From positions 124,232 to 188,231 of the forward strand of contig NZ_POSO01000002.1 of NCBI RefSeq assembly GCF_002993975.1: a stretch of 64,000 nt of DNA. The letters run 5' to 3'. The stretch is from Apilactobacillus micheneri (GTDB lineage: Bacteria > Bacillota > Bacilli > Lactobacillales > Lactobacillaceae). A program made the translations under genes and the position numbers. A model generated the notes under the pieces. The model was not told where the DNA came from. It saw only the letters and a list, made by a program, of their open reading frames with translations, and searched no databases. Below, piece after piece: positions 14,884-52,678 of the stretch (positions are counted from its first letter, which is position 1; every line of letters begins with the position of its first letter).

Positions 14884-15876
14884 TTAATTAATTGTGATAT
14901 CACCATCGGAACTGGTAAAGTTATAAACCTTATTAGATTGTGGATGATTTAAACTAGAATCGATATTGTTATCACCATCCGAAGTATTAGAAACAATTCT
15001 AGCATTATCATTACTGTAAACATCCCCATCAATATCACCGTCAGAAGAATCCGCTCTTAAGCTATGTTTGATATCTTGATGGTCAAAACTAATATCACCA
15101 TCGGAACTAGATAAGCTTAAAGCATGCCAACTGTTATGCCCTAAGTTCAAGTCACCATCGGAACTTTCTAATTTGCTAAAGCCATTGTGAATTATATTAT
15201 CACTCATTGAAACATCTCCGTCATTACTAGAAGCATTTAATGAATCAAATTCATTTCCATGAAGAGAAACGTCTCCATCAGCACTAGACAAGTCACTATG
15301 ACCTTTATCAAATTTACTGTTAGCAATATAAACATCATCATCACCGGATTCTGCTTTAATGCTACCAGCATGAATATTTTTAGCATTAACACCACCATCT
15401 ATATTAATGCCATTAGTAATATTCAAGCCATCAATACTAAAATCACTTAAATCATTTTTAGCCAAAAGTGATGACAATTGAGTGCCTTTTTTAACATAAA
15501 TAGTAATTGAAGAATTATTATGATCTAAATATCCAATTCTTAATAACTTAGATAAAACAGATGTATTTTTATTTTTAATATTTAACTGACCATTGGCAAT
15601 TGAATAATCTAAATTTTGCTTTTTGGATAATTTTGCTTCAATTTTAGATTCATTGCCACTCTTAATGGTAACCGGCATCCCCATTGAACCAGCATTGGAG
15701 ATATCCATATTGATTGAATTAAAATTACCTAATTTTTTGGAAACTGTATGCGTTATTTTATTATTAGGATTATTTTGTCCATTAGGCAATTGAAAATCAT
15801 TTTTGGCAAAACCAATTATAAATAATATAAATCCTATGATTATAACTACACCTGATATTTGCATAATTCTCTTCAT
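14884..15876 (-). CDS. DUF4097 beta-helix repeat membrane protein
   Basis: A 330-residue envelope protein with one N-terminal membrane helix (about residues 5-25) and an extracytoplasmic DUF4097 beta-repeat domain. The last 150 residues hold at least seven short repeats ending in SSDGD, or close variants (SSADGD, SSNDGD, TSDGD), about 20 residues apart. These form the rungs of a parallel beta structure. It is the third gene of the PadR-DUF1700-DUF4097 unit. Its ATG shares one base with the upstream stop codon, so translation is probably coupled. Homologous units are involved in envelope-stress responses in Gram-positives, but this protein's role is unknown. Confidence 0.88.
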   Translation of the reverse strand: MKRIMQISGVVIIIGFILFIIGFAKNDFQLPNGQNNPNNKITHTVSKKLGNFNSINMDISNAGSMGMPVTIKSGNESKIEAKLSKKQNLDYSIANGQLNIKNKNTSVLSKLLRIGYLDHNNSSITIYVKKGTQLSSLLAKNDLSDFSIDGLNITNGINIDGGVNAKNIHAGSIKAESGDDDVYIANSKFDKGHSDLSSADGDVSLHGNEFDSLNASSNDGDVSMSDNIIHNGFSKLESSDGDLNLGHNSWHALSLSSSDGDISFDHQDIKHSLRADSSDGDIDGDVYSNDNARIVSNTSDGDNNIDSSLNHPQSNKVYNFTSSDGDITIN

Positions 15877-16445
15877 TATTTATCACCCTTTCTTTTGCCA
15901 ATTTTTCCATAAGCCCATATAAATAATTTCTTAATTCCGGTAATTGTTTTGGCAGAAATCCAGAACAAACCACAAAATAGAATAGTTGAAACAGAGATTG
16001 CTACTAGACCAGCACCTATAAACATTAAGATAGTTTGTAAATCAAATCTCAAACCACCAATAATAAAGGCAATTCCTGAAAGAAATACTGATAACAACAC
16101 TGCAAATATTGAGATAAAAATAACTAGTGGCATGATAACAAAGAAAACAAAGAACATAACTGCTAATGGAATCGTAATTGGCGTCGAACATATGCCTAAT
16201 ATTACTAACCAAATCGTTTTCATATTTTCACGTGACTTTTTACTATCTTTATTCCTTTTAATTGATTGTTCAGCCATAATCTTTCTCGTTAAAAATTTAG
16301 GCGTACCCAAATCATTAACACAATCTTCATAAGTACTAAATGGACCATCAGTTAAGTAATCAGTATAGAATTCTAATGCACTTTCAGCATCTTCACTGTT
16401 ATATTTTGACAAATATTTACGCAATTCTTCTAAATATTGATCCAT
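15876..16445 (-). CDS. DUF1700 (HAAS domain) membrane protein
   Basis: A 189-residue protein with an N-terminal helical HAAS/DUF1700 domain (MDQYLEELRKYLSKYNSED through the DLGTPKFLTRKI segment) and three or four membrane helices in the C-terminal 110 residues. The HAAS domain is thought to link PadR-type regulators to membrane partners. It lies 2 bases after the PadR gene and overlaps the DUF4097 gene by one base, so the three genes form one translational unit. Confidence 0.88.
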   Translation of the reverse strand: MDQYLEELRKYLSKYNSEDAESALEFYTDYLTDGPFSTYEDCVNDLGTPKFLTRKIMAEQSIKRNKDSKKSRENMKTIWLVILGICSTPITIPLAVMFFVFFVIMPLVIFISIFAVLLSVFLSGIAFIIGGLRFDLQTILMFIGAGLVAISVSTILFCGLFWISAKTITGIKKLFIWAYGKIGKRKGDK

Positions 16446-16857: not shown

Positions 16858-16895
16858 AAAAAGGTGTCGCTCGTATATCACGAACGACACCTTTC
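16858..16895 (-). terminator. Strong terminator of the microprotein operon
   Basis: AAAGGTGTCG-C-TCGT pairs with ACGA-A-CGACACCTTT (14 pairs, one mismatch). On the minus strand it is followed by a run of six T. It begins 3 bases after the stop of the last small ORF. Confidence 0.9.
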
Positions 16896-16897
16896 AT

Positions 16898-17038
16898 TTA
16901 AGTTGGGGGTAATTCTACTTTAATAGAATCAGTAATGTAATTATTCAATGAGTTGATAAATACATTACCCTTACCATCCTTGTAAACTCCCAGCGGTAGA
17001 GCATGTTTATTTGAATTTAAGTTTAAATTTTTAATCAT
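16898..17038 (-). CDS. Microprotein 6 of the array (46 aa)
   Basis: The last ORF of the array. It reads MIKNLNLNSNKHALPLGVYK followed by DGKGNVFINSLNNYITDSIK and VELPPT. It lacks the basic tail of the others but shares LP-x-G-(V/I)-YK...NVF with microprotein 1, so it seems to be a diverged relative with a changed C-terminus. The ribosome site AGGGG is about 10 bases before this ATG. It ends only 3 bases before the strong terminator, which confirms that this is the 3' end of the operon. No signal peptide or membrane helix. Confidence 0.55.
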   Translation of the reverse strand: MIKNLNLNSNKHALPLGVYKDGKGNVFINSLNNYITDSIKVELPPT

Positions 17039-17078
17039 ATTAATCATCCCCTAATAACGTAACCCATCAACAATTAGG

Positions 17079-17174
17079 TTAACGCTTTAGACGATCACGT
17101 CTTTTCATCATCACTTTTGAAAAGATTGATACACTTTTAATTTCAGAATTAAAATATAGATTTATTGTAACCAT
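17079..17174 (-). CDS. Microprotein 5 of the array (31 aa)
   Basis: A 31-residue ORF: MVTINLYFNSEIKSVSIFSK then VMMKRRDRLKR. GGAGATG lies 6 bases before the ATG. The C-terminal KRRDRLKR matches the N-(K/R)-R-L-D-K-(L/R)-K-R tail of microproteins 1 and 3. Strongly basic, with no cysteine and no signal peptide. Unknown function. Confidence 0.6.
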   Translation of the reverse strand: MVTINLYFNSEIKSVSIFSKVMMKRRDRLKR

Positions 17175-17195
17175 TTTAATCATCTCCATAAATAA

Positions 17196-17306
17196 TTATC
17201 TAATGCAAGATGGCTTTCGTTTATCTAAACACCCATTTGCAGTTTTAGCATTATTGAAGATATTATATTTAAATTTTTTAAAAGAGGTTAATTTGCTAGC
17301 AATCAT
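17196..17306 (-). CDS. Microprotein 4 of the array (36 aa)
   Basis: A 36-residue ORF: MIASKLTSFKKFKYNIFNNA then KTANGCLDKRKPSCIR. AGGAGATG lies 6 bases before the ATG. The tail NGCLDKRK is the family motif with a cysteine in place of an arginine, and a second cysteine follows at residue 34, so a disulfide or a modification site is possible (inference). Confidence 0.6.
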   Translation of the reverse strand: MIASKLTSFKKFKYNIFNNAKTANGCLDKRKPSCIR

Positions 17307-17345
17307 GTTAAACATCTCCTAATTTAAGCAATTTAATAAAATTAA

Positions 17346-17432
17346 TTAACGCTTTCGTTTATCCAAACGTTTATTAGTATCTTGAATAACAGTTAGAGCA
17401 CTACCTTTTAAATTAAATTTATTCATTTTCAT
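17346..17432 (-). CDS. Microprotein 3 of the array (28 aa)
   Basis: The shortest member, 28 residues: MKMNKFNLKGSALTVIQDTN then KRLDKRKR. CGGAGATGG lies about 9 bases before the ATG. The last nine residues NKRLDKRKR are the clearest form of the shared basic tail, giving a strongly positive peptide. It reduces the family to a core strand (SALTVIQDT) plus the tail. Confidence 0.6.
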   Translation of the reverse strand: MKMNKFNLKGSALTVIQDTNKRLDKRKR

Positions 17433-17462
17433 GATTACCATCTCCGAAACTAAATTATTATT

Positions 17463-17588
17463 TTATTGCTTTAGTCGGTTTAATCGACGATTAGAGATAT
17501 TAATATAAAACACGCTACCTTTCTCGTCTTTGACTGAGAAATTCTTATAATTTAAAATTGAAAACTCACTTACTGAACCTGTTGTCAT
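17463..17588 (-). CDS. Microprotein 2 of the array (41 aa)
   Basis: A 41-residue ORF: MTTGSVSEFSILNYKNFSVK, DEKGSVFYIN, ISNRRLNRLKQ. AGGAGATG lies 7 bases before the ATG. SVKDEKGSVF aligns with GVYKDGKGNVF of microprotein 6 and IYKQDMRNVF of microprotein 1. SNRRLNRLKQ is the tail motif with Asn in place of Asp. It therefore links the two halves of the family pattern. Confidence 0.6.
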   Translation of the reverse strand: MTTGSVSEFSILNYKNFSVKDEKGSVFYINISNRRLNRLKQ

Positions 17589-17614
17589 ATTAAACATCTC
17601 CTTTAATTAAATAA

Positions 17615-17773
17615 TTAGTTTGCGGAACGCTTCAACTTATCCAATCGATTGGTAGAGACAATAATATAATTAAAAACATTCCTCATATCTTGTTTGTAAA
17701 TACCAGTAGGCAATTTAAATTTGTCAGATACTAAGTGCAATAAGTCTAAATGATTTTTCTTATTCTTAATCAT
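17615..17773 (-). CDS. Microprotein 1 of the array (52 aa)
   Basis: The first and longest ORF of the array: MIKNKKNHLDLLHLVSDKFK, LPTGIYKQDM, RNVFNYIIVS, TNRLDKLKRSAN. AGGAGGAGAT lies 6 bases before the ATG, and a good promoter (TTGCAT, 16 bases, TATTAT) is 34 bases further upstream. It carries both shared features: the LP-x-GIYK...NVF segment (residues 21-34) and the tail NRLDKLKR (42-49). No signal peptide, no membrane helix, no cysteine. I know no described family with this pattern. Confidence 0.65.
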   Translation of the reverse strand: MIKNKKNHLDLLHLVSDKFKLPTGIYKQDMRNVFNYIIVSTNRLDKLKRSAN

Positions 17774-17806
17774 ATTTATCTCCTCCTAACGATTAAGATT
17801 ATCCTC

Positions 17807-17834
17807 ATAATACTATCATTATTTTTTAATGCAA
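17807..17834 (-). promoter_or_regulatory. Promoter of the microprotein operon
   Basis: On the minus strand TTGCAT (17834-17829) is followed after 16 bases by TATTAT (17812-17807). The first ORF starts at 17773 with a strong ribosome site between. Confidence 0.65.
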
Positions 17835-27590: not shown

Positions 27591-28595
27591 CTAAAATAAT
27601 AGCTCACTTTGTAAATTATTATTAAATAATAATTCTTCTTGTATAATATCTTTTGGTATTTTTATTTTTTTTAACATCCAAATTCTAATAATAAATTGAG
27701 AGATAATTAATATCATATATCTATCTTCAAGTGAAACATAATCAGATTTATATTCTAAAGAACTATGAGAACTCCCATTTCTTGCTTTCCATAATAAATT
27801 ACATAAAGAATATTTATCATTAAATCTAGACCTATTCAATATTTGTTGAACAATTTCATCATCAAAACTGTTTAGTATTACTAAGACTTTCATATCAAAT
27901 GTTTTATTTTTCTTTTTAGATTTTTCTAATTTTGAATTTTCTGTTTTTAAAAGAACATTTAATTTATCATCTAAAAAATGCTTAGCTATCATATCTAGAC
28001 CAGAAAAAGCGCCAGAAAGTTGTTGATCAATAGTTCCAATTTCAGGAGATACTATTGAAATATCATATATAGGTTTTAGCTCATCTACATTATTAATCCA
28101 TTCAAATAGTGAATTTATTATAATATCAATAAATTCGCTATTTCTTATATTTCTTTTAAGCTCAAAAAAGAAATCTTGTTTTTTAACTTTCTTTATAGGT
28201 GTTCTAGAAAGTTTCAAAACATTATAATTATCATTAAAATATAAAAAAGATTTGAGTACTTGCTGCATATAAGAAGATATTAATGAAAAATAAGTAGATA
28301 AAATATTTTCATATTTATTAACATCAGACAAGTTAATGTTATCTTTTTTTAAATTAATATAGCTTGATAGTTGATAACCAATTATATTATTTAATAAACT
28401 ATGCTTATTAACATAAATACATTTATTGTTTAAAGAAATATTTATATTATCTTCATTTTTACGTGATGAATTTAAATCCTTGATATTATTAATTTGATTT
28501 ATGTTCAAATCGCCATTAATAAATTGACTAAAATTTGATAAATAAATTGAACAAGAATTAAAATTTATATCATTGTTTATAAACATATTACCCAT
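27591..28595 (-). CDS. ApeA-like HEPN protein, C-terminal part
   Basis: A 334-residue frame carrying the larger part of what looks like one ApeA-type protein. The start (FINNDINFNSCSIYLSNFSQF) continues the N-terminal ApeA domain of the frame at 28588-28926. A long helical region follows. Near the C-terminus ARNGSSH (residues 271-277) gives the R-x4-H motif of HEPN ribonucleases, at Arg272 and His277. ApeA proteins are anti-phage proteins thought to act through RNA cleavage. The ATG at 28595 overlaps the previous stop, so a separate product by coupled translation is possible. Base composition is strikingly AT-rich, which suggests transfer. I rely on domain pattern, not a database match. Confidence 0.6.
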   Translation of the reverse strand: MGNMFINNDINFNSCSIYLSNFSQFINGDLNINQINNIKDLNSSRKNEDNINISLNNKCIYVNKHSLLNNIIGYQLSSYINLKKDNINLSDVNKYENILSTYFSLISSYMQQVLKSFLYFNDNYNVLKLSRTPIKKVKKQDFFFELKRNIRNSEFIDIIINSLFEWINNVDELKPIYDISIVSPEIGTIDQQLSGAFSGLDMIAKHFLDDKLNVLLKTENSKLEKSKKKNKTFDMKVLVILNSFDDEIVQQILNRSRFNDKYSLCNLLWKARNGSSHSSLEYKSDYVSLEDRYMILIISQFIIRIWMLKKIKIPKDIIQEELLFNNNLQSELLF

Positions 28596-28926
28596 ATATA
28601 TATTTCGATTTGCAATTATATACTTTACTTAAACCAGCTATCCCGTCAATACTAAAATAGTTCTTATAAAGAGATATGTGGCTTACATAAAATTTATTGT
28701 TATTAATATGTATAAAGCCTTTACCATAAATAAAATCAATACGTTCAGAATTTATTAGAAAATCATCGGTAATTGAATCATTAGTTATTAAATTTATACC
28801 ATTATTATCGTAATTCAAAAAACCATCAATGTTTAAATTATTTTTATCTATTCCCCATTTACCAACAATTTTAAAGTTGTCATATGAATTTATACAATTT
28901 AAATCCAATTGAATCATCTCTTTCAT
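28588..28926 (-). CDS. ApeA-like protein, N-terminal part
   Basis: A 112-residue frame with the opening pattern of the ApeA N-terminal domain: IVGKWGIDKNNLNIDGFLNY then NNGINLIT, a beta-rich start with G-x-W and G-x-L-x-x. It runs into YNCKSKYIYG and stops because of a 2-base phase difference at an (AT)5 tract (28594-28603). One more AT unit would join it in frame to the HEPN-bearing frame, giving a protein of about 446 residues. The start codon is not certain: ATG at 28926 and another three codons later both lie near GAAAGAG. Confidence 0.55.
   Translation of the reverse strand: MKEMIQLDLNCINSYDNFKIVGKWGIDKNNLNIDGFLNYDNNGINLITNDSITDDFLINSERIDFIYGKGFIHINNNKFYVSHISLYKNYFSIDGIAGLSKVYNCKSKYIYG
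28594..28603. repeat. (AT)5 tract at the ApeA frame junction
   Basis: Five AT units lie exactly where the two ApeA-like frames meet. On the minus strand the sequence is AAATATATATATGGGTAATATG; gain of one AT unit restores a single frame. Confidence 0.6.
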
Positions 28927-29034
28927 AAATATTAAAATATTTTATAATATATTAAATTATATTTAAGCATTATCTAAACTAGCAGATTCTTTAAGGAATT
29001 TAATACACATTCATTTTTAAAGTTTTAATAATTT

Positions 29035-29045
29035 AATCACTTATG
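29035..29045 (-). repeat. Candidate att-like repeat matching the rlmH 3' end
   Basis: On the minus strand TATCATAAGTGATT here matches TACCATAAGTGATT at the 3' end of rlmH (13 of 14 bases, same orientation). The rlmH 3' end is the attachment site used by SCC elements in staphylococci. Confidence 0.3.
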
Positions 29046-29115
29046 ATAAGGACTATCTTAACCTTTTTAGATGAGGTTTTATGTAAAAATTATCCCATTA
29101 ATGTTTACACATAAT

Positions 29116-29153
29116 AAAATAGTTGATCATTTATATAAATGATCAACTATTTT
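29116..29153 (-). terminator. Terminator of the WxL surface operon
   Basis: A perfect 17-base-pair stem (AAAATAGTTGATCATTT with its complement) around ATAT, with a T-rich tail in both directions. Confidence 0.85.
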
Positions 29154-29166
29154 TATTATAACGTTT

Positions 29167-31701
29167 CTAAGGAGTTCCATTATCTTTAATGCTCCAATTT
29201 AATTCTGCATTATAACTAGTTGTTCCTTTTTGTATACTATAATTATGTTCATTAAAATTAGTATTATTACCTAATTTTAATTCATTTTGATTATCCCAAT
29301 TTATATTAGAAACAGTATCATTATCATCATCATTAGTTATATTATTATTAAATATGTCTATAGGTTCACTATTTGGATTCAAAATATTATCATTATTATT
29401 TTTAAAATAATGTAAAATAAATGGAGATTCTTTAGAGCCAATTTCATTTACCGAGTTATTACTTATCGGTATCTGGGATAAATACACGCTATAGGGAATT
29501 TTATATCTCCGTGAATCGTAAATTTGAGCCATATTATAAACTTTATTTTTATTAACGCTATAATAATTATTTTGTCTTTCTATTTTTGAAGGAGAAAGTA
29601 ATGTATTTATATAAAAACTATCCTTTATCCCATAATCAATATCGTTTATATAATTAAAGGATAAATTTCCGTTATCAAAATTATAGTTTTCTTTTTGACC
29701 AATATAGTAATCGCTTCCATCCATAAACGTAGGAGTAGATGAAAATGATGTTGGATTTTTATTATCTAATTTTATTGTGGCTGTAATATTAACATCATTA
29801 TTCACACTAATAGATGGTAAGTTGTAAATAGTAACAAGTTTTCTTTTACTATCATTAGAATTTTTATTCAAATAATTTCCTATAGAATTGCTATATTCAT
29901 AATTATCACTAATTTTGTAGTAAGGTGAACTATTAGTAGCATTAGATGATATTTGTTTATTATTAACTGATATATCAGCTTGATTTCCATTTAAACTAGG
30001 AACCCAAAAACTATAAGTGCCACTATTACTTGTTTTAGAACCATCAACAATATTTTTTAAATTTGTACTATACTTAATAGAATTATAACTAGATACATCG
30101 GACAGATTATCCGATTTCAATGAATCATTTTTATTAACATTAGTCATCTTATTATCCACTAATATTCTATTATTAATTGGCGGGAGTGTTTTATTAACAT
30201 ATACATTAGCTACACTTGAGCGACTAGCATTATTTCCCTCAATACTATTTCCATAAAAATTACTTCCACTAGCAACAACTATGTTACTTCTTGGATTAGA
30301 AATATTTTTATTAGAATTAATTATTGTTCTTATTCCAACAGATGATGGTTGCACATCACTATTGGAATTAATATCAATAGGTGGAATATCTTCATAAGTA
30401 GCATCAATATTATTCCGATTATCTAATGAAGTCATTCCTTTATCAGATAAATTATCATCAACCACCTTAACATTAGTCCAATCATTTCCAATTCCATCAA
30501 TAGTCTTATAATTATAAATACTTACTTTATAGAGTATAACATCACCAACATTAGTGTTTTTAACAGATGCTGAAAAATATTCTGAGGGAACTAAAGATAC
30601 AAGCATGTTTGATAAATCTGCATCAGAGGATGATGAATTAGGATTATATATACAATCTATTAATTCCTTTTTTGTTAATTCTGATTGATTAGAATTGTCT
30701 ATATTGTATTTTATTTGTTTCTTCTTATCATCTGATAAATTTGATATATCCAAAGCCAGTTTAGTTATACCAGGGTCTCCCGTAACTGCGGTATCAGCAA
30801 TAGCAGAAATCATCGTATACAATCCCGTTGAACCTGTAAATCCCCACCATACATATGGGTTATTATTGTTAGCCCCTAATATCTGGTTGATATCAATCAC
30901 ATGAGATTGATGAATACTACTGTCATCAATCTGAACATCAGCTTTTGCTGTCCCATCACTATTTGGTGTCCAATTATAAATAAATTTATGCCATTTAGGA
31001 AGTAAAATTCCAGGCCAGTCTGATAAAGGATGTGCATCGTAATGATTTTGACTAAATCCATAATTACCATATAAACTACCTCGAGTTAGACCATTAATAC
31101 CAGTAGAATCTGTTGTAGTAAATGCAGTATGTTGACCTGTTATTGAATTGCCAAATTTATCTTGTAATCCGTTATCACTATAGTCCCCATTGTAATAGGG
31201 ATCAAACTCATATGAAAAATCATTTTTTATATAATCACCATCATAATAGTTATTACTTCTCACATCACCGTAAGCACCCATGGACTCCCCATTAGTACCA
31301 ATCGCATTACTTTTAATAGGATTACCATTACTATCAGTAATCTGTTTCCTATCATCATTTTGCAATGAGAATGTTATACCATCAGCAACATTACTTAAAT
31401 CTGGCGCTGTAATGTAAGCATAGAACTTAATTGTAAAAGGTTTAGTAACATTAACCTTATTCTTCCACCACATTGCCTGTTTAGTTCTTTGTGATCCATC
31501 AGTGATAATTTGAACATTATTATATTTATCGTATATTTGTTTAGGAACATTGGATCCAATGACATTAAAATTACCTTGCATTGATGGACCACCCGAAGGT
31601 GGTGCTGGAATTTGTGTATCTGCGTGAATACTAATATTGCATTTTAAACAAAGGATTATCAACAACATAAAAAATAATAATAGTTTCTTAAAACATCTCA
31701 A
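29167..31701 (-). CDS. Large secreted adhesin with L-type lectin domain
   Basis: An exported protein of 844 residues, last gene of the WxL locus. The start I prefer is TTG at 31701, 8 bases after GGAG. After a signal peptide a legume-lectin-like domain occupies about residues 30-290, with FNVIGSNV, MWWKNKVNVTKPFTIKFYAY, ADGITFSLQND and WPGILLPKWHKFIYNW typical of the bacterial lectin family found with WxL proteins. The rest is asparagine- and serine-rich beta repeats without obvious catalytic motifs. There is no LPxTG and no C-terminal membrane helix, and no clear WxL domain at the end apart from a final ELNWSIKDN segment. Probably a surface glycan-binding adhesin. Confidence 0.8.
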   Translation of the reverse strand: MRCFKKLLLFFMLLIILCLKCNISIHADTQIPAPPSGGPSMQGNFNVIGSNVPKQIYDKYNNVQIITDGSQRTKQAMWWKNKVNVTKPFTIKFYAYITAPDLSNVADGITFSLQNDDRKQITDSNGNPIKSNAIGTNGESMGAYGDVRSNNYYDGDYIKNDFSYEFDPYYNGDYSDNGLQDKFGNSITGQHTAFTTTDSTGINGLTRGSLYGNYGFSQNHYDAHPLSDWPGILLPKWHKFIYNWTPNSDGTAKADVQIDDSSIHQSHVIDINQILGANNNNPYVWWGFTGSTGLYTMISAIADTAVTGDPGITKLALDISNLSDDKKKQIKYNIDNSNQSELTKKELIDCIYNPNSSSSDADLSNMLVSLVPSEYFSASVKNTNVGDVILYKVSIYNYKTIDGIGNDWTNVKVVDDNLSDKGMTSLDNRNNIDATYEDIPPIDINSNSDVQPSSVGIRTIINSNKNISNPRSNIVVASGSNFYGNSIEGNNASRSSVANVYVNKTLPPINNRILVDNKMTNVNKNDSLKSDNLSDVSSYNSIKYSTNLKNIVDGSKTSNSGTYSFWVPSLNGNQADISVNNKQISSNATNSSPYYKISDNYEYSNSIGNYLNKNSNDSKRKLVTIYNLPSISVNNDVNITATIKLDNKNPTSFSSTPTFMDGSDYYIGQKENYNFDNGNLSFNYINDIDYGIKDSFYINTLLSPSKIERQNNYYSVNKNKVYNMAQIYDSRRYKIPYSVYLSQIPISNNSVNEIGSKESPFILHYFKNNNDNILNPNSEPIDIFNNNITNDDDNDTVSNINWDNQNELKLGNNTNFNEHNYSIQKGTTSYNAELNWSIKDNGTP

Positions 31702-31705
31702 AATA

Positions 31706-32611
31706 TCATCTCCGAACAATAATCATCAATATAAGCAGTATAGCAGTAGATATAAAAAAGATTAAAAACTTATAATGAATAAAAGAATTCCCATTAAATT
31801 CTTTATTTAAATTTAATTTATGATTCACAGTTACGGAAATATTTTTTAATAGTACATTTTTATTATTACTTTGTAAAATTAGGTAAAAACTACTTTTAGG
31901 CGCAATATTAATATCTGAAAAGGATTTCTTTAATATATCATTATTAGTTTTTAAATCAATCTGCAAGTGTCTATACAAAATACTATTTGGATTTTTAATT
32001 TGTATCATGTATCCATGATTTTGGTCAGAGTAGAAATAATTTCCAATAGATAATTTTTGTAAATTAGACTCTAAATTAATTTCATTGAAAGAAATTCCAT
32101 TAATATAACTAACCTCATTCTTTATTGATTTTTTATTGCCAACATCATAAAAGGTTGTAATCACACCTCCAAGCTTAGATCCATAAAATAAATTGCTTTT
32201 GGTGTAAAAATTATACCTTATAACTTTTTGAGTAAAGGGTTTTAATGTATTAAATTTTAAATTCTTACCTATTAAACCTGACAATAACATGTCATTATTA
32301 TGACTTAGATTATTATAAACTATATTACCATTATCAGCTGTACTTGCATTTTTTATAATAGATCTAAAAAACAATTGTTTATTGGTATTATTTGTCACCA
32401 ATAGTGAAATATTATAATGCTTATTGGGTTCAACAGATAAATTAAAATAACGGCTATTTTTTATAATCGGAAGTCCACTTAACATTGGTCTAACTGATAC
32501 ATTATTTTTTTGTTTAGCATAGATACCAATACTAAAATAAAGTATACAAAAAAATATTATAAAAAAGATGATAATATTAATTTTTATAAACCATGACTTC
32601 GTCATTATCAT
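31706..32611 (-). CDS. Diverged WxL-interacting (DUF916/DUF3324-like) protein
   Basis: A 301-residue exported protein with an N-terminal signal/anchor helix (about 10-30) and a C-terminal TM helix ending in RR. The middle matches the WxLIP layout: the SVRPMLSGLPIIKNSRYFNL opening, an NISLLVTNNTNKQ beta-strand region, and a DUF3324-like second half. It is a second, strongly diverged member next to the standard DUF916 gene at 32903. It overlaps the preceding small gene by four bases, so translation is coupled. Confidence 0.65.
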   Translation of the reverse strand: MIMTKSWFIKINIIIFFIIFFCILYFSIGIYAKQKNNVSVRPMLSGLPIIKNSRYFNLSVEPNKHYNISLLVTNNTNKQLFFRSIIKNASTADNGNIVYNNLSHNNDMLLSGLIGKNLKFNTLKPFTQKVIRYNFYTKSNLFYGSKLGGVITTFYDVGNKKSIKNEVSYINGISFNEINLESNLQKLSIGNYFYSDQNHGYMIQIKNPNSILYRHLQIDLKTNNDILKKSFSDINIAPKSSFYLILQSNNKNVLLKNISVTVNHKLNLNKEFNGNSFIHYKFLIFFISTAILLILMIIVRR

Positions 32612-32886
32612 AGCCCCCTATTTTTTACCTTATTAATAAGTATTTTTAACAGTAAAATTAAAATAATTATCAACAAAATAATTATTATTGTTTTACAAAT
32701 AACTATTATTGGAGGAAAAAAGTCATTTAAATTAGGTTCAATCCTAACCATTGGTTGAGGCTTATTTGTCTTAATAATAATTCTAGACTTTCTACCATCA
32801 TAATAATCTGCAAAAACATTAATTGATAAATTATCAAAAATTAAAATGATTGTTAATAAAATAATCGAAAATTTCAATTTAAACAT
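32608..32886 (-). CDS. Small anchored protein of the WxL locus
   Basis: A 92-residue protein with a signal peptide (1-26), a short external part (YYDGRKSRIIIKTNKPQPMV) and a C-terminal membrane helix followed by KNRGL. Small cell-wall-anchor proteins are regular members of WxL clusters; this one lacks a recognisable LPxTG, so it would be membrane-anchored. It overlaps the next gene by four bases. Confidence 0.6.
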   Translation of the reverse strand: MFKLKFSIILLTIILIFDNLSINVFADYYDGRKSRIIIKTNKPQPMVRIEPNLNDFFPPIIVICKTIIIILLIIILILLLKILINKVKNRGL

Positions 32887-32902
32887 TTATATCATCTTAA
32901 AA

Positions 32903-33940
32903 TTAATCCTTATCTTCCAAAGTTTTATGTTTTTTATGTTGTCTATATATGATGTACACCAATAAAAGTATCAAAATTAATAATATTATTATTATTATTA
33001 ACCACCACCATATTTTTTTAGCATTATATTCAAGTGCCTGTTCAAAACTTACATTAAAATCTTTATCTATCTTCCAATGATTATTATTACCATCTTTTGC
33101 ATCAATATGAATATGATAAGTTCCGGGAATCATTAAATTACTATTTACATAATTATCATAAGTAAAATTAGAATTAGGTGCTAAACTCATACCGGTCTCT
33201 TTTGCACTACTTAAAATGTGAGAAGAATCACCTTTTCTATAAATCTTATTACTCATAGTCATATTAGTAGATGTTGTTGGTTGCTCATTGTAAAGATGAC
33301 TATAGATAATACCATTCCTATTTTGTTGCTTAAAACCAACTTTACCCAAAGTTAGTTTAGGTACAACTTTTATATTCCGATCTCTTAAATATACTGGCAT
33401 TGCAACAGCAAATTTATTGGTAATACTTGCACCATTTTGTTTATAATATGCCTCGTCTAATTTAGGCTTAACATATAAAGATCCAAGTATAATACCTTCA
33501 TAATGTTTTTTAGGTATACGAACTTGAACTTTCACAGTAGTGGCTTTATTTGGTTGTAAAGTAACACGATATTTCTTTTTGATGCTTAAGTCAGAAAACT
33601 TATATTTAAGACTATGGTCTTTAGGAAATCTCTTTGTATTATCAAAACTAATCGCCCCACCATTAGTGGTATATGCAGTAGTTGGATAAACAATCATGTC
33701 TTGTTTTTCATTGGATAAATTTATCAAACTTAAATCCAAATCCTGCACATCTCCAGGCTTAGTGTCTACAAAAAAAATTCCATTTTTCATTATTTGGTTA
33801 TTAGGATATATAGGTTTCAATGCTAGCGCAGGCGCATTGGTAGCATAAACATTTGATTGATTAAAAAATAAAGTTAGTGAAGAAAACAATAGCAATGAGA
33901 AAATTAAAAATAAAAAATTTTTCTTTGATAACTTGTTCAT
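32903..33940 (-). CDS. WxL-interacting protein, DUF916 + DUF3324
   Basis: A 345-residue membrane-anchored surface protein. It has a signal peptide (1-33), a DUF916 domain (about 35-155, including FFVDTKPGDVQDLDLSLIN), a DUF3324 domain (about 165-300), a C-terminal TM helix (about 308-332) and a basic tail. In characterised WxL clusters this protein binds both the WxL protein and peptidoglycan and so holds the surface complex. Second gene of the operon, downstream of the WxL protein gene. Confidence 0.92.
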   Translation of the reverse strand: MNKLSKKNFLFLIFSLLLFSSLTLFFNQSNVYATNAPALALKPIYPNNQIMKNGIFFVDTKPGDVQDLDLSLINLSNEKQDMIVYPTTAYTTNGGAISFDNTKRFPKDHSLKYKFSDLSIKKKYRVTLQPNKATTVKVQVRIPKKHYEGIILGSLYVKPKLDEAYYKQNGASITNKFAVAMPVYLRDRNIKVVPKLTLGKVGFKQQNRNGIIYSHLYNEQPTTSTNMTMSNKIYRKGDSSHILSSAKETGMSLAPNSNFTYDNYVNSNLMIPGTYHIHIDAKDGNNNHWKIDKDFNVSFEQALEYNAKKIWWWLIIIIILLILILLLVYIIYRQHKKHKTLEDKD

Positions 33941-34056
33941 AAAAATAGCTCTCCATTGAATATGTATTAAAACGGATATAAATTATATCCATTTTGAGAT
34001 AATAAAAAGTCTAACATCTAGACTGTAAGACTATCTAATAGCCACCCAGTTGGAGT

Positions 34057-34851
34057 TTATTGACCTGGAGTTTGTTGACCTGAAGTTTGTTGAGCTTTAC
34101 TAGTATCAGTTGGTGTTCCAGGTGTTGGATCTGGTGTTGATCCAGCTCCTAGTGACCAATAAACTGGGGCATTGTAAGTACCTACTTTTAGATTGCCTGG
34201 CATATCAAGAGTGGCTTGACTACTATTGCTTGCATAATCTAATGTTGTTTCACCCTTATTTTTTCCGGGACTTGATTGCATTACAGTCTTCGCATTAGAA
34301 TTACCATCATCGCTTCCCTTTAAACTTACGGGGTTTGTTTGAATAATGTTATTTTGGTTATTCTTAGAATTTGTATTATTTAAGTTTAAAGTCCAGTCAC
34401 TAGCATTTGCTTTATTGTCAGTATATCCTGCGTCAGGCGAAGTAAATTTACCAAGAGAAGCATTCAAAGTCCAATTGTTATTATTACCATTTCTACTATC
34501 GGAAACTGCAATCTGACCATTACTTGCACCATTACCAAATAAGTTAGCTCTCATTGCACTACTATTATCAGTTTGAATACCAAAGTCAAAATCAGGTACT
34601 GCTTCTAAAACTAAATAACCATTTACAACTTTAACAGTTGCCTTAGAAGTCTTTTTAGCGTAATCAGTTGAACTATTTTTACTATTACTAGGATCAATAG
34701 GACTTCCGTTATTATAAACACTAGTATCTGGAACTGAACCATTAGTACTGTGAGAATCGGCATGAGCCATCACATTACTTGTTGATAAACCTAATCCCAA
34801 TAAAGTAGAAAACAAGACACCGCATGAAACTATTTTTCTTTTCTTCAACAT
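34057..34851 (-). CDS. WxL domain surface protein
   Basis: A 264-residue exported protein, first gene of the locus. The signal peptide is at residues 1-31 (cut near AHA-DS). The WxL domain has a first motif, NNWTLNASLG, and a second, APVYWSLGAGS, which bind non-covalently to peptidoglycan. WxL proteins normally end right after the second motif. Here a tail of 27 residues rich in Pro, Thr and Gln follows (TPDPTPGTPTDTSKAQQTSG), which could be a spacer or glycosylation region. A promoter (TTGTTT, 17 bases, TATAAT) lies upstream. Confidence 0.9.
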   Translation of the reverse strand: MLKKRKIVSCGVLFSTLLGLGLSTSNVMAHADSHSTNGSVPDTSVYNNGSPIDPSNSKNSSTDYAKKTSKATVKVVNGYLVLEAVPDFDFGIQTDNSSAMRANLFGNGASNGQIAVSDSRNGNNNNWTLNASLGKFTSPDAGYTDNKANASDWTLNLNNTNSKNNQNNIIQTNPVSLKGSDDGNSNAKTVMQSSPGKNKGETTLDYASNSSQATLDMPGNLKVGTYNAPVYWSLGAGSTPDPTPGTPTDTSKAQQTSGQQTPGQ

Positions 34852-50887: not shown

Positions 50888-52678
50888 TTAAATCCCTAGA
50901 ATAGCATCAAAAATCCTTTGTGGCAGTATTATATTAGCGCTTGAAATTTTACGTTTATTGATATTTTGTCGACGTAATAATGCTTGCTTTTTTGAGATAC
51001 TTTTTTTCTCACCACTAACAGCAGCATTTTTCCTAAGTGGTGGAATATCTACTCTAGCAATTACACGTCCTTCTACATATGCTTGTACTGGAATTGGATA
51101 TAGTTTTTTAGGCATAACGTATTTTAATTTATGCACAATTGATTGTGCCAATTGACTGGCATTATTTCTATGAACAATAAATGTTAATGCATCAACTGGC
51201 GAATAATTAACATCAATAGAAATTTTAACAATATCAGAAACTTTATATTCTAAAAATTTGGTATCAAAAGTAGCATAACCATGTGATATTGATTTCAATT
51301 TATTGAAAAAATTATAAGCAATTTCTGCAACCGGTAATTCATAAGTTAATTCTACTAGATTTGAATCATTATCCATAGTTATTAAAATTCCTCGACTTTG
51401 ATTAGCCAAATCCATAACTTTACTCATTGAGCTTGAGGGTACTTTCATTTTTACTTCATCATATGGTTCTTCAATTGAATTAATTTTAGAAAAGTTAGGC
51501 ATTTTCGCCGGATTATCAATATTATTAATTGCCTCATTTCCATTTAAAATAACACGATAATTTACATTAGGATTAGTAACAATTACAGATATATCAAAAT
51601 CATTAATTAATCTTTCACGCACAATTTGCAAATGAAACATTCCTAAAAATCCACAACGAAATCCTTGTCCAAGGGAATCAGAATTATCTTCTGTGTAATA
51701 TAATGAAGAATCATTAAGTGATAATTTTTCAATTGCCATCTTCAAATCATCATAATTAGAATTTTTTGGATAAATTCCAGCATAAACAACCGAACGAACT
51801 GGTTTATAACCAGGAACAGCATGAATGGTTGGTTCTAATTTGCTAGTGATCGTATCTCCTACACGAACTCCTTTAGGATCTTTGATTCCAGTAACTATAT
51901 ATCCAATATCACCAGAATGTAATTCTTTAACTGGCTTTAAAGAAGGTGTAAATATTCCTATTTCATTGTTTTCAAATGATTGATTATTAGACATAAATTT
52001 TAATTTTTGGTTTGCTCTTAACTTACCATCATAAATTCTTACATAAGCAATAATTCCTTTATAAGAATCATAAATAGAATCAAATATTAAGCTTTTTAAT
52101 GGAGCATCTATATCTCCATTTGGTTGTGGAATTTCTTCAACTATAGATTCTAAGACTTGATCAACATTTAGCCCCGTTTTTGCAGAAATATGCAAAATAT
52201 TCTTTTCAATTAAGCTATCATCTAAATCATAAATTTGTTGTTCACACATATCTATTTGTGCATTTTTATTATCAACTTTATTAATGACCGGAATAACTGG
52301 TAAATGATTAGCTTTAGCAATTTTATAGTTAGCAACCGTTTGGGCTTGTACACCCTTAGTAGCATCAACCAATAATATAACTCCATCACTAGCTGATAAA
52401 CTCTTCGATACTTCATATGAAAAGTCTACATGTCCAGGAGTATCAATTAAATTCAATTCATAAGTCTGACCATTTCTATCATGGTATAAATTTCTTACGG
52501 TTCTTGATCTAACAGTCACTCCATGACTTTTTTCAACATCCATATCATCCAAAATTTGGCTTTCATGATTTCTAAAACTTACAGTATCAGTTATTTGCAT
52601 AATCTTATCTGATAAAGTGGATTTACCATGATCAATATGTGCAATAATCGAGAAATTTCTAATATTTCTTTGTTCCAT
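50888..52678 (-). CDS. Divergent LepA (elongation factor 4) paralogue
   Basis: A 596-residue translational GTPase with the LepA domain order. G1 is AHIDHGKST, G3 is DTPGHVDF, G4 is NKVD. The C-terminal LepA-specific domain is shortened and changed, ending LRRQNINKRKISSANIIL and FDAILGI. Where standard LepA has an RGIT-type switch I, this one has SHGVTVRSRTVR, and the C-terminal GGDISRK-type segment reads SGEKKSISKK. It is therefore more likely a second copy than the housekeeping factor. It starts 5 bases after a TetR-type regulator gene, an unexpected partner for a translation factor. Confidence 0.85.
   Translation of the reverse strand: MEQRNIRNFSIIAHIDHGKSTLSDKIMQITDTVSFRNHESQILDDMDVEKSHGVTVRSRTVRNLYHDRNGQTYELNLIDTPGHVDFSYEVSKSLSASDGVILLVDATKGVQAQTVANYKIAKANHLPVIPVINKVDNKNAQIDMCEQQIYDLDDSLIEKNILHISAKTGLNVDQVLESIVEEIPQPNGDIDAPLKSLIFDSIYDSYKGIIAYVRIYDGKLRANQKLKFMSNNQSFENNEIGIFTPSLKPVKELHSGDIGYIVTGIKDPKGVRVGDTITSKLEPTIHAVPGYKPVRSVVYAGIYPKNSNYDDLKMAIEKLSLNDSSLYYTEDNSDSLGQGFRCGFLGMFHLQIVRERLINDFDISVIVTNPNVNYRVILNGNEAINNIDNPAKMPNFSKINSIEEPYDEVKMKVPSSSMSKVMDLANQSRGILITMDNDSNLVELTYELPVAEIAYNFFNKLKSISHGYATFDTKFLEYKVSDIVKISIDVNYSPVDALTFIVHRNNASQLAQSIVHKLKYVMPKKLYPIPVQAYVEGRVIARVDIPPLRKNAAVSGEKKSISKKQALLRRQNINKRKISSANIILPQRIFDAILGI

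What the first reader, a model, noticed from the sequence alone, without database searches (positions are those of the whole stretch)
16895..17834. Operon of six tandem microproteins in a region that looks empty
Between padR and dacA about 1.1 kb holds no long ORF. Reading the minus strand shows six ORFs of 52, 41, 28, 36, 31 and 46 codons, head to tail with 21-40 base gaps. Each is preceded by a good site (AGGAGGAGAT, AGGAGATG, CGGAGATGG, AGGAGATG, GGAGATG, AGGGG). A promoter (TTGCAT-16-TATTAT) starts the unit and a strong hairpin ends it 3 bases after the last stop. Chance cannot easily give six sites, correct spacing, promoter and terminator together. I know of no described family like this.
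Basis: seen in the sequence. Interest (0 to 1): 0.88.

Follow-up and report, generated by a model that had tools for sequence, protein, structure and literature searches.

The report
Tandem array of related bacterial microproteins
A bee- and flower-associated lactobacillus carries, in a stretch that looks empty, six tiny related genes in a row; relatives keep the first and last gene but swap and reshape the middle ones, which points to a real, undescribed family of microproteins whose function is still unknown.

Summary
Six short ORFs with ribosome-binding sites lie head to tail on the minus strand (17773-16898) between dacA and padR; 20,000 shuffles gave at most three. Seven arrays (29 ORFs, 1-6 each) occur in 6 of 16 Apilactobacillus genomes, at three kinds of site, with one shared promoter and leader. 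Beyond the genus, 397 family and 395 order genomes (genus members included) and the curated, phage, plasmid and structure libraries searched gave nothing convincing. First and last genes are under purifying selection. Middle genes keep frames and a conserved tail but have dN/dS near 1, differ between sister species, and were exchanged between species (G000/G007 synonymous change 6.5/62.5 inside against 36/55.8 outside). Function is not shown. Best reading: soluble, mostly basic peptides acting in the cell, with middle members diversifying in some conflict, possibly with phages. Rivals: drifting duplicates, or secreted leaderless peptides; tryptophan, hydrophobicity and a constant partner gene expected of leaderless bacteriocins were not found.

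The parts
17807..17834 (-). promoter TTGCAT-16-TATTAT
   Evidence: read in sequence; TTGCAT-like and TATAAT-like boxes at constant spacing head the 7 arrays; not reported by the consensus scan
17774..17806 (-). conserved 5' leader with ribosome-binding site (ATAATCTTAATYGWTRGGAGGAGATWA)
   Evidence: pattern made from the seven sites: it matches those 7 and no other place in 16 genus genomes at up to 3 mismatches, and a shorter form no other place in 397 family genomes at up to 2
17615..17773 (-). ORF1, head microprotein, 52 aa (LPTGIYK..NVF and RLDKLKR)
   Evidence: dN/dS 0.18-0.52 over 6 species pairs, 4 of 6 with p below 0.01
17463..17588 (-). ORF2, middle cassette, 41 aa (DEKGSVF, RLNRLKQ)
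   Evidence: orthologue in G007 with 0 of 25.8 synonymous and 5 of 97 nonsynonymous changes
17346..17432 (-). ORF3, middle cassette, 28 aa (RLDKRKR)
   Evidence: orthologue in G007
17196..17306 (-). ORF4, middle cassette, 36 aa (CLDKRKP)
   Evidence: orthologue in G007
17079..17174 (-). ORF5, middle cassette, 31 aa (KRRDRLKR)
   Evidence: orthologues in G010 and G009
16898..17038 (-). ORF6, tail microprotein, 46 aa (LPLGVYKDGKGNVF, ends KVELPPT)
   Evidence: dN/dS 0.11-0.27 over 6 species pairs, p 0.011 to 1.4e-6
16859..16895 (-). intrinsic terminator of the unit
   Evidence: inverted repeats of differing sequence can be read at the same place in G010, G009 and G007 (sequences, not folded)

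Best explanation
This is one operon of small paralogous proteins built as a cassette array: a promoter and leader shared by the seven known arrays, a conserved head gene, a conserved tail gene, and a changeable set of middle genes, each with its own ribosome-binding site. Shown by sequence comparison: paralogy, intact frames, purifying selection on head and tail, gain/loss and between-species exchange of middle genes, no constant neighbour. Inferred: the peptides are translated, soluble, stay in the cytoplasm and use the basic tail to bind an acidic partner (nucleic acid or nucleoprotein); the middle members vary because their target is an opponent that changes, most simply a phage or other mobile element. 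Confidence: about 0.9 that these are real, translated, related microproteins in one operon; about 0.3 for the conflict role.
For: Chance test. Paralogy: a profile of the 5 head proteins only scores 20 of the 23 other tabulated peptides above their own shuffles at p <= 0.034, and all 5 other window members. Tail motif, written after seeing the tails, in 13 of 16 middle genes against 0.09 expected in shuffles. Arrays in G000, G010 (two), G009, G007, G012, G014. Shared head sequence. Head and tail genes dN/dS 0.18-0.52 and 0.11-0.27. Frames: neutral substitution would leave all six compared middle pairs open with probability about 1e-4 (one ORF used twice, simple model). Last 8 residues of middle genes change less: 6 of 48 against 47 of 134, p 0.003. 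Exchange: G000/G007 synonymous change 36/55.8 in ORF1+6 against 6.5/62.5 in ORF2-4, p 5e-10; G010/G009 4/33.2 in two middle genes against 86.5/208.3 in dacA, p 0.0009. Sisters G000 and G010 share only ORF5 among middle genes. Composition: 26 of 28 tabulated peptides have charge above +1 at pH 7; highest 15-residue mean hydrophobicity 0.37.
Against: Middle genes: nonsynonymous and synonymous rates do not differ (0.129 v 0.104; 0.129 v 0.121; 0.204 v 0.205), so positive selection is not shown and relaxation fits as well. Three middle peptides (G010 and G009 relatives of ORF5, and G009_4) do not exceed shuffles in the head-profile test (p 0.14, 0.22, 0.68). ORF1 between close species is not significantly constrained (p 0.19, 0.092). 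No link to defence genes, phages or plasmids was found in what was searched. No structure prediction. No expression data. Cytoplasmic location rests on composition alone. G012/G014 members lack the basic tail, and G014_1 is slightly acidic. In G007 genes that look like an ABC transporter set lie just downstream (by eye), though not at the other arrays.
Confidence: 0.4

Rival explanations
1. Head and tail microproteins do the work (a regulator or ribosome/RNA-associated peptide); the middle genes are tandem duplicates drifting with little selection and shuffled by recombination through their similar spacers and tails.
For: dN/dS of middle genes about 1 with head and tail constrained; G012 has one gene and G014 two near-identical copies, so the middle set is dispensable; the second G010 array holds 19- and 22-codon members.
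Against: Frames, ribosome-binding sites and tails of middle genes persist across species; between-species exchange of drifting duplicates needs a separate reason.
Confidence: 0.35
2. A multi-peptide leaderless bacteriocin or other secreted antagonistic peptide set.
For: Several short, mostly cationic peptides without leader in one operon; fast turnover suits antagonism.
Against: No Trp in 28 of 28 tabulated peptides and GRAVY negative in 27 of 28 (the 19-codon ORF of the second G010 array is not in this table and, read by eye, has one Trp). No neighbouring gene is constant across the sites (ORF lists; neighbours were not scanned for transporter, PH-domain or immunity domains).
Confidence: 0.17
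3. Leader peptides or a structured RNA that regulates a neighbour.
For: Short ORFs; a leader that can fold over the ribosome-binding site.
Against: A strong terminator closes the unit; the downstream neighbour differs between sites and in G007; amino-acid level constraint on ORF1 and ORF6; no Rfam match; the window's leader fold is no better than shuffles (z -0.86).
Confidence: 0.05
4. Chance ORFs in an AT-rich spacer.
For: AT-rich region without long ORFs.
Confidence: 0.01

Closest known systems
Multi-peptide leaderless bacteriocin operons (aureocin A70, garvicin KS recalled; class described in PMC11580447, passages seen)
   Same: several short cationic peptides without leader, in tandem in one operon
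   Different: no Trp in 28 tabulated peptides, hydrophilic, no constant neighbour; no bacteriocin sequence was compared here
Phenol-soluble modulin alpha operon (recalled)
   Same: run of very short leaderless genes under one promoter
   Different: modulins are amphipathic membrane-active helices (recalled); these are hydrophilic with a basic tail; not compared by sequence
RRNPP and similar signalling propeptides (recalled; one paper seen only in a search listing, PMC10075063)
   Same: small genes in Firmicutes
   Different: several different peptides in one operon, no export signal seen, no constant neighbour that could be the receptor

Membership tests
leaderless bacteriocin | short cationic peptide without leader | tested here: met
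   22-55 aa in the 28 tabulated peptides, 26 of 28 with charge above +1
leaderless bacteriocin | Trp-containing, hydrophobic, membrane-active sequence | tested here: not met
   no Trp in 28 of 28; highest 15-residue mean hydrophobicity 0.37. Passages of PMC11580447 say that non-aureocin types have fewer Trp, so the feature is not absolute; membrane activity itself was not testable
leaderless bacteriocin | membrane-associated export/immunity gene in the cluster | tested here: inconclusive
   no neighbour is constant in the ORF lists, but neighbours were not scanned for domains and unlinked genes are not excluded; transporter-like genes lie beside the G007 array only
leaderless bacteriocin | antimicrobial activity | not testable with these tools
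   needs peptide assays
leader peptide / attenuator | regulated gene downstream in the same transcript | tested here: not met
   terminator after ORF6 and differing downstream genes
type I toxin | hydrophobic membrane-spanning peptide | tested here: not met
type I toxin | antisense RNA | not tested
   no transcript data
phage or plasmid gene family | members in phage or plasmid records | tested here: not met
   partial tests: phages with ORF1 only (2 chance-level matches, E 1 and 3), plasmids with ORF6 and the array DNA, viral contigs with the first G014 protein and the leader pattern, PHROGs with 16 members (best E 0.092)
known anti-phage defence family | match to a PADLOC model | tested here: not met
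   16 members scanned; one weak match of one member, E 0.023
curated protein family | Pfam or NCBIfam match | tested here: not met
   six window proteins: none; 16 members: best E 0.064 in Pfam, 0.017 in NCBIfam, each for one member

The most novel reading that the evidence does not exclude
A dedicated diversification locus for microproteins: fixed head and tail genes frame a store of exchangeable cassettes of about 22-46 residues with a fairly constant basic tail and a variable front, traded between bee-associated species and used against phages or competitors.
Probability: 0.25. Interest if true: 0.85.

Novelty: categorically new. Interest (0 to 1): 0.66.

Why it matters
Genes this short are easily passed over by annotation. 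Here comparison across species shows a whole family of them, organised as an array with conserved ends and a changing middle. If the middle peptides are conflict weapons or shields, this is a compact natural library of short functional peptides and a simple model for how new microproteins arise, duplicate and spread. If they are drifting duplicates, it is a clean case of gene birth and decay at microprotein scale. 'Categorically new' means that none of the known kinds I considered fits; the function remains open, and a distant tie to a known kind is not excluded.

Tried and rejected
Rfam, Pfam, NCBIfam, PHROGs, PADLOC and PDB sequence searches gave no convincing match. Weak profile matches outside the genus were looked at: four family genomes (E 0.0016-0.0032) show no small-ORF array at the match; three order genomes of one genus match inside an ORF of 318-320 aa that reads as a XerC-like recombinase in the one copy that my script listed whole (name recalled); the fourth order match crosses stops. 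I take all eight as chance. Three genus genomes have matches at E 0.14-0.57, also taken as chance. The XerC resemblance (LPxxxYxDxM..IF) was considered as an origin and left aside as too weak.

Profile A1 was built from 16 members by hand choice; 16 of the 17 strong matches are its own rows, so that search proves little about paralogy. The head-only test with shuffles was made for that reason; 3 of 23 peptides fail it.

Positive selection on the middle genes was tested and not shown. A tail-motif pattern scan gave 15 matches: 5 array tails (G007 two, G000, G009, G010 one each) and 10 elsewhere; the three of those ten that I checked lie inside longer ORFs. The reversed control gave 2, in G007.

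A neighbouring tandem family of 71-83 aa proteins in G012/G014 was tested as a partner; it also occurs in genomes without arrays and away from the arrays in G007, G009, G010, so it is not a constant partner.

In one search my coordinates for the third ORF of the second G010 array were out of frame; it was dropped from the peptide counts (28 of 29 remain) and read by eye (19 codons). Searches failed on script errors; one search is the run that worked.

Full report
What is there. Six ORFs of 52, 41, 28, 36, 31 and 46 codons run head to tail on the minus strand from 17773 to 16898. Of 20,000 dinucleotide shuffles of the 940-nt stretch, one gave 3 non-overlapping ORFs of this kind and none gave more. 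A 17-bp terminator hairpin follows the last stop, and another hairpin follows dacA upstream. In many members an ATG also lies inside the GGAGATG site; in some relatives it is out of frame with the ORF (second ORF of G010 and G009, last ORF of G009 and G007; sequences), which supports the downstream ATG as the start.

Who carries it. The window belongs to Apilactobacillus: its dacA product is 98% identical to that of A. timberlakei HV_12 and 92% to A. quenuiae HV_6. Arrays were found in 6 of 16 genus genomes: the window (6 ORFs), G010 (4 beside dacA, and a second array of 5 beside rlmH), G009 (5), G007 (6), G012 (1) and G014 (2 near-identical), 29 ORFs in all. In 9 genomes without an array dacA is followed by a purE-like gene (9 of 9 loci read; gene names recalled). 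On a LepA tree of the 16 genomes, having the array needs one change, with branch support 91/92: one origin followed by one loss, or one gain, is possible since the root is not fixed.

They are one family. A profile of the five head proteins alone scores 20 of the 23 other tabulated peptides above their own 1,000 shuffles at p <= 0.034, including all five other window members (ORF2 0.001, ORF3 0.034, ORF4 0.002, ORF5 0.019, ORF6 0.001); the three that fail are the G010 and G009 relatives of ORF5 and one G009 cassette. The common features are LPxG(I/V)YKDxxGxVF and a tail like RLDRLKR. A motif written from the tails is present in 13 of 16 middle genes, 0.09 expected in shuffles. Tail codons differ between paralogues while residues agree. 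The larger profile A1 finds all this at E 8e-25 to 2e-7, but 16 of its 17 strong matches are its own rows.

Shared head. From the -35 box to the start codon the seven arrays, at three kinds of site, are alike, with spacing constant to one base. The leader pattern, made from these seven, has no other match in 16 genus genomes at up to 3 mismatches, nor a shorter form of it in 397 family genomes at up to 2; reversed controls gave 0. The leader can fold over the ribosome-binding site: -1.5 to -5.7 kcal/mol in six arrays, -8.3 in G012; the window's fold is no better than shuffles (z -0.86).

Selection. Tail gene: dN/dS 0.11-0.27 in six species pairs, p 0.011 to 1.4e-6. Head gene: 0.18-0.52 in six pairs, p below 0.01 in four and not significant in two close pairs. 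dacA beside them has 0.04-0.11. Middle genes have nonsynonymous rates equal to synonymous ones in three comparisons, so they change much faster at protein level than their neighbours, but positive selection is not shown. They are not plain junk: frames stay open, with a neutral survival probability of about 1e-4 over six pairs (one ORF counted twice, simple model), and the last eight residues change less than the rest (6 of 48 against 47 of 134, p 0.003).

Exchange. Between G000 and G007, synonymous change is 36 of 55.8 sites in ORF1 and ORF6 but 6.5 of 62.5 in ORF2-4 (p 5e-10); dacA and padR of the same pair have dS about 1.0. The middle block has therefore most likely moved between these lineages after they split. 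G000 and its sister G010 share only ORF5 among middle genes, while G010 shares its other one with G009. At the rlmH site G010 has its second array where the window has a block of surface-protein-like genes (descriptions by eye).

How it may work. No member shows a membrane-like stretch; 26 of 28 tabulated peptides have charge above +1 and none contains Trp; the 19-codon ORF left out of the table has one. No neighbour is constant (ORF lists; not scanned for domains); in G007 transporter-like genes lie just downstream. This suits peptides that act in the cell without a dedicated exporter or immunity gene, with the basic tail as a binding element. A changing opponent would explain turnover and exchange; drift of duplicates would too. 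I give the conflict reading about 0.3 and drift about 0.35 for the middle genes, with head and tail functional in either case. Location, binding and opponent are inference.

Known or not. Searches of curated families, phage families, defence models, solved structures, phages, plasmids and viral contigs gave nothing convincing, each with the queries named in the membership table. The family and order samples (397 and 395 genomes, drawn from larger groups, genus members included) gave weak matches in 4 genomes each outside the genus, which look like chance. Paper searches on small proteins in Apilactobacillus, tandem microproteins, leaderless multi-peptide systems, A. kunkeei bacteriocins and hypervariable small proteins listed nothing that by title and abstract start describes it (lists were capped). 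The comparative genomics paper on this clade, PMC6685495, does not hold the words bacteriocin, small protein or hypothetical in its main text (passages seen). That library holds open-licence papers only, so a description elsewhere is possible.

Limits. One genome per species; the window's assembly is 93% complete; dN/dS on ORFs of 24-55 codons is rough and the species pairs are not independent; no structure prediction, no expression data.

Noticed in passing
L028 7348-8303 (+), L029 95-1017 (-), L139, L140, L141, L142: A second tandem family of diverged 71-83 aa paralogues (MK....YxFxY), 3-4 copies, in 10 of 16 genus genomes; in those read, at differing sites, and beside the microprotein genes in G012 and G014 only.
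   Followed up: partly
window 27591-34851 and L025 6794-7483: At the site beside rlmH the window has a block of surface-protein-like genes, while the sister species G010 has a second microprotein array.
   Followed up: partly
window 50888-52678: A GTPase that looks like a LepA paralogue (name recalled); copies at 64-100% identity in 10 of 16 genus genomes, against 43-44% for the second, ubiquitous copy. G000 has it, its close relatives G009 and G010 do not.
   Followed up: no
window 17774-17806: The array leader can pair ATCTT with GGAGAT over the ribosome-binding site; strongest in G012. Possible translational control, untested; window fold not better than shuffles.
   Followed up: partly
window 15876-16445 against L026 5216-5788 and L027 14061-14627: The gene after padR is much more diverged (dN about 0.64-0.68) between G000/G010 and G009/G007 than padR and dacA, which may mean that this gene was replaced.
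   Followed up: no
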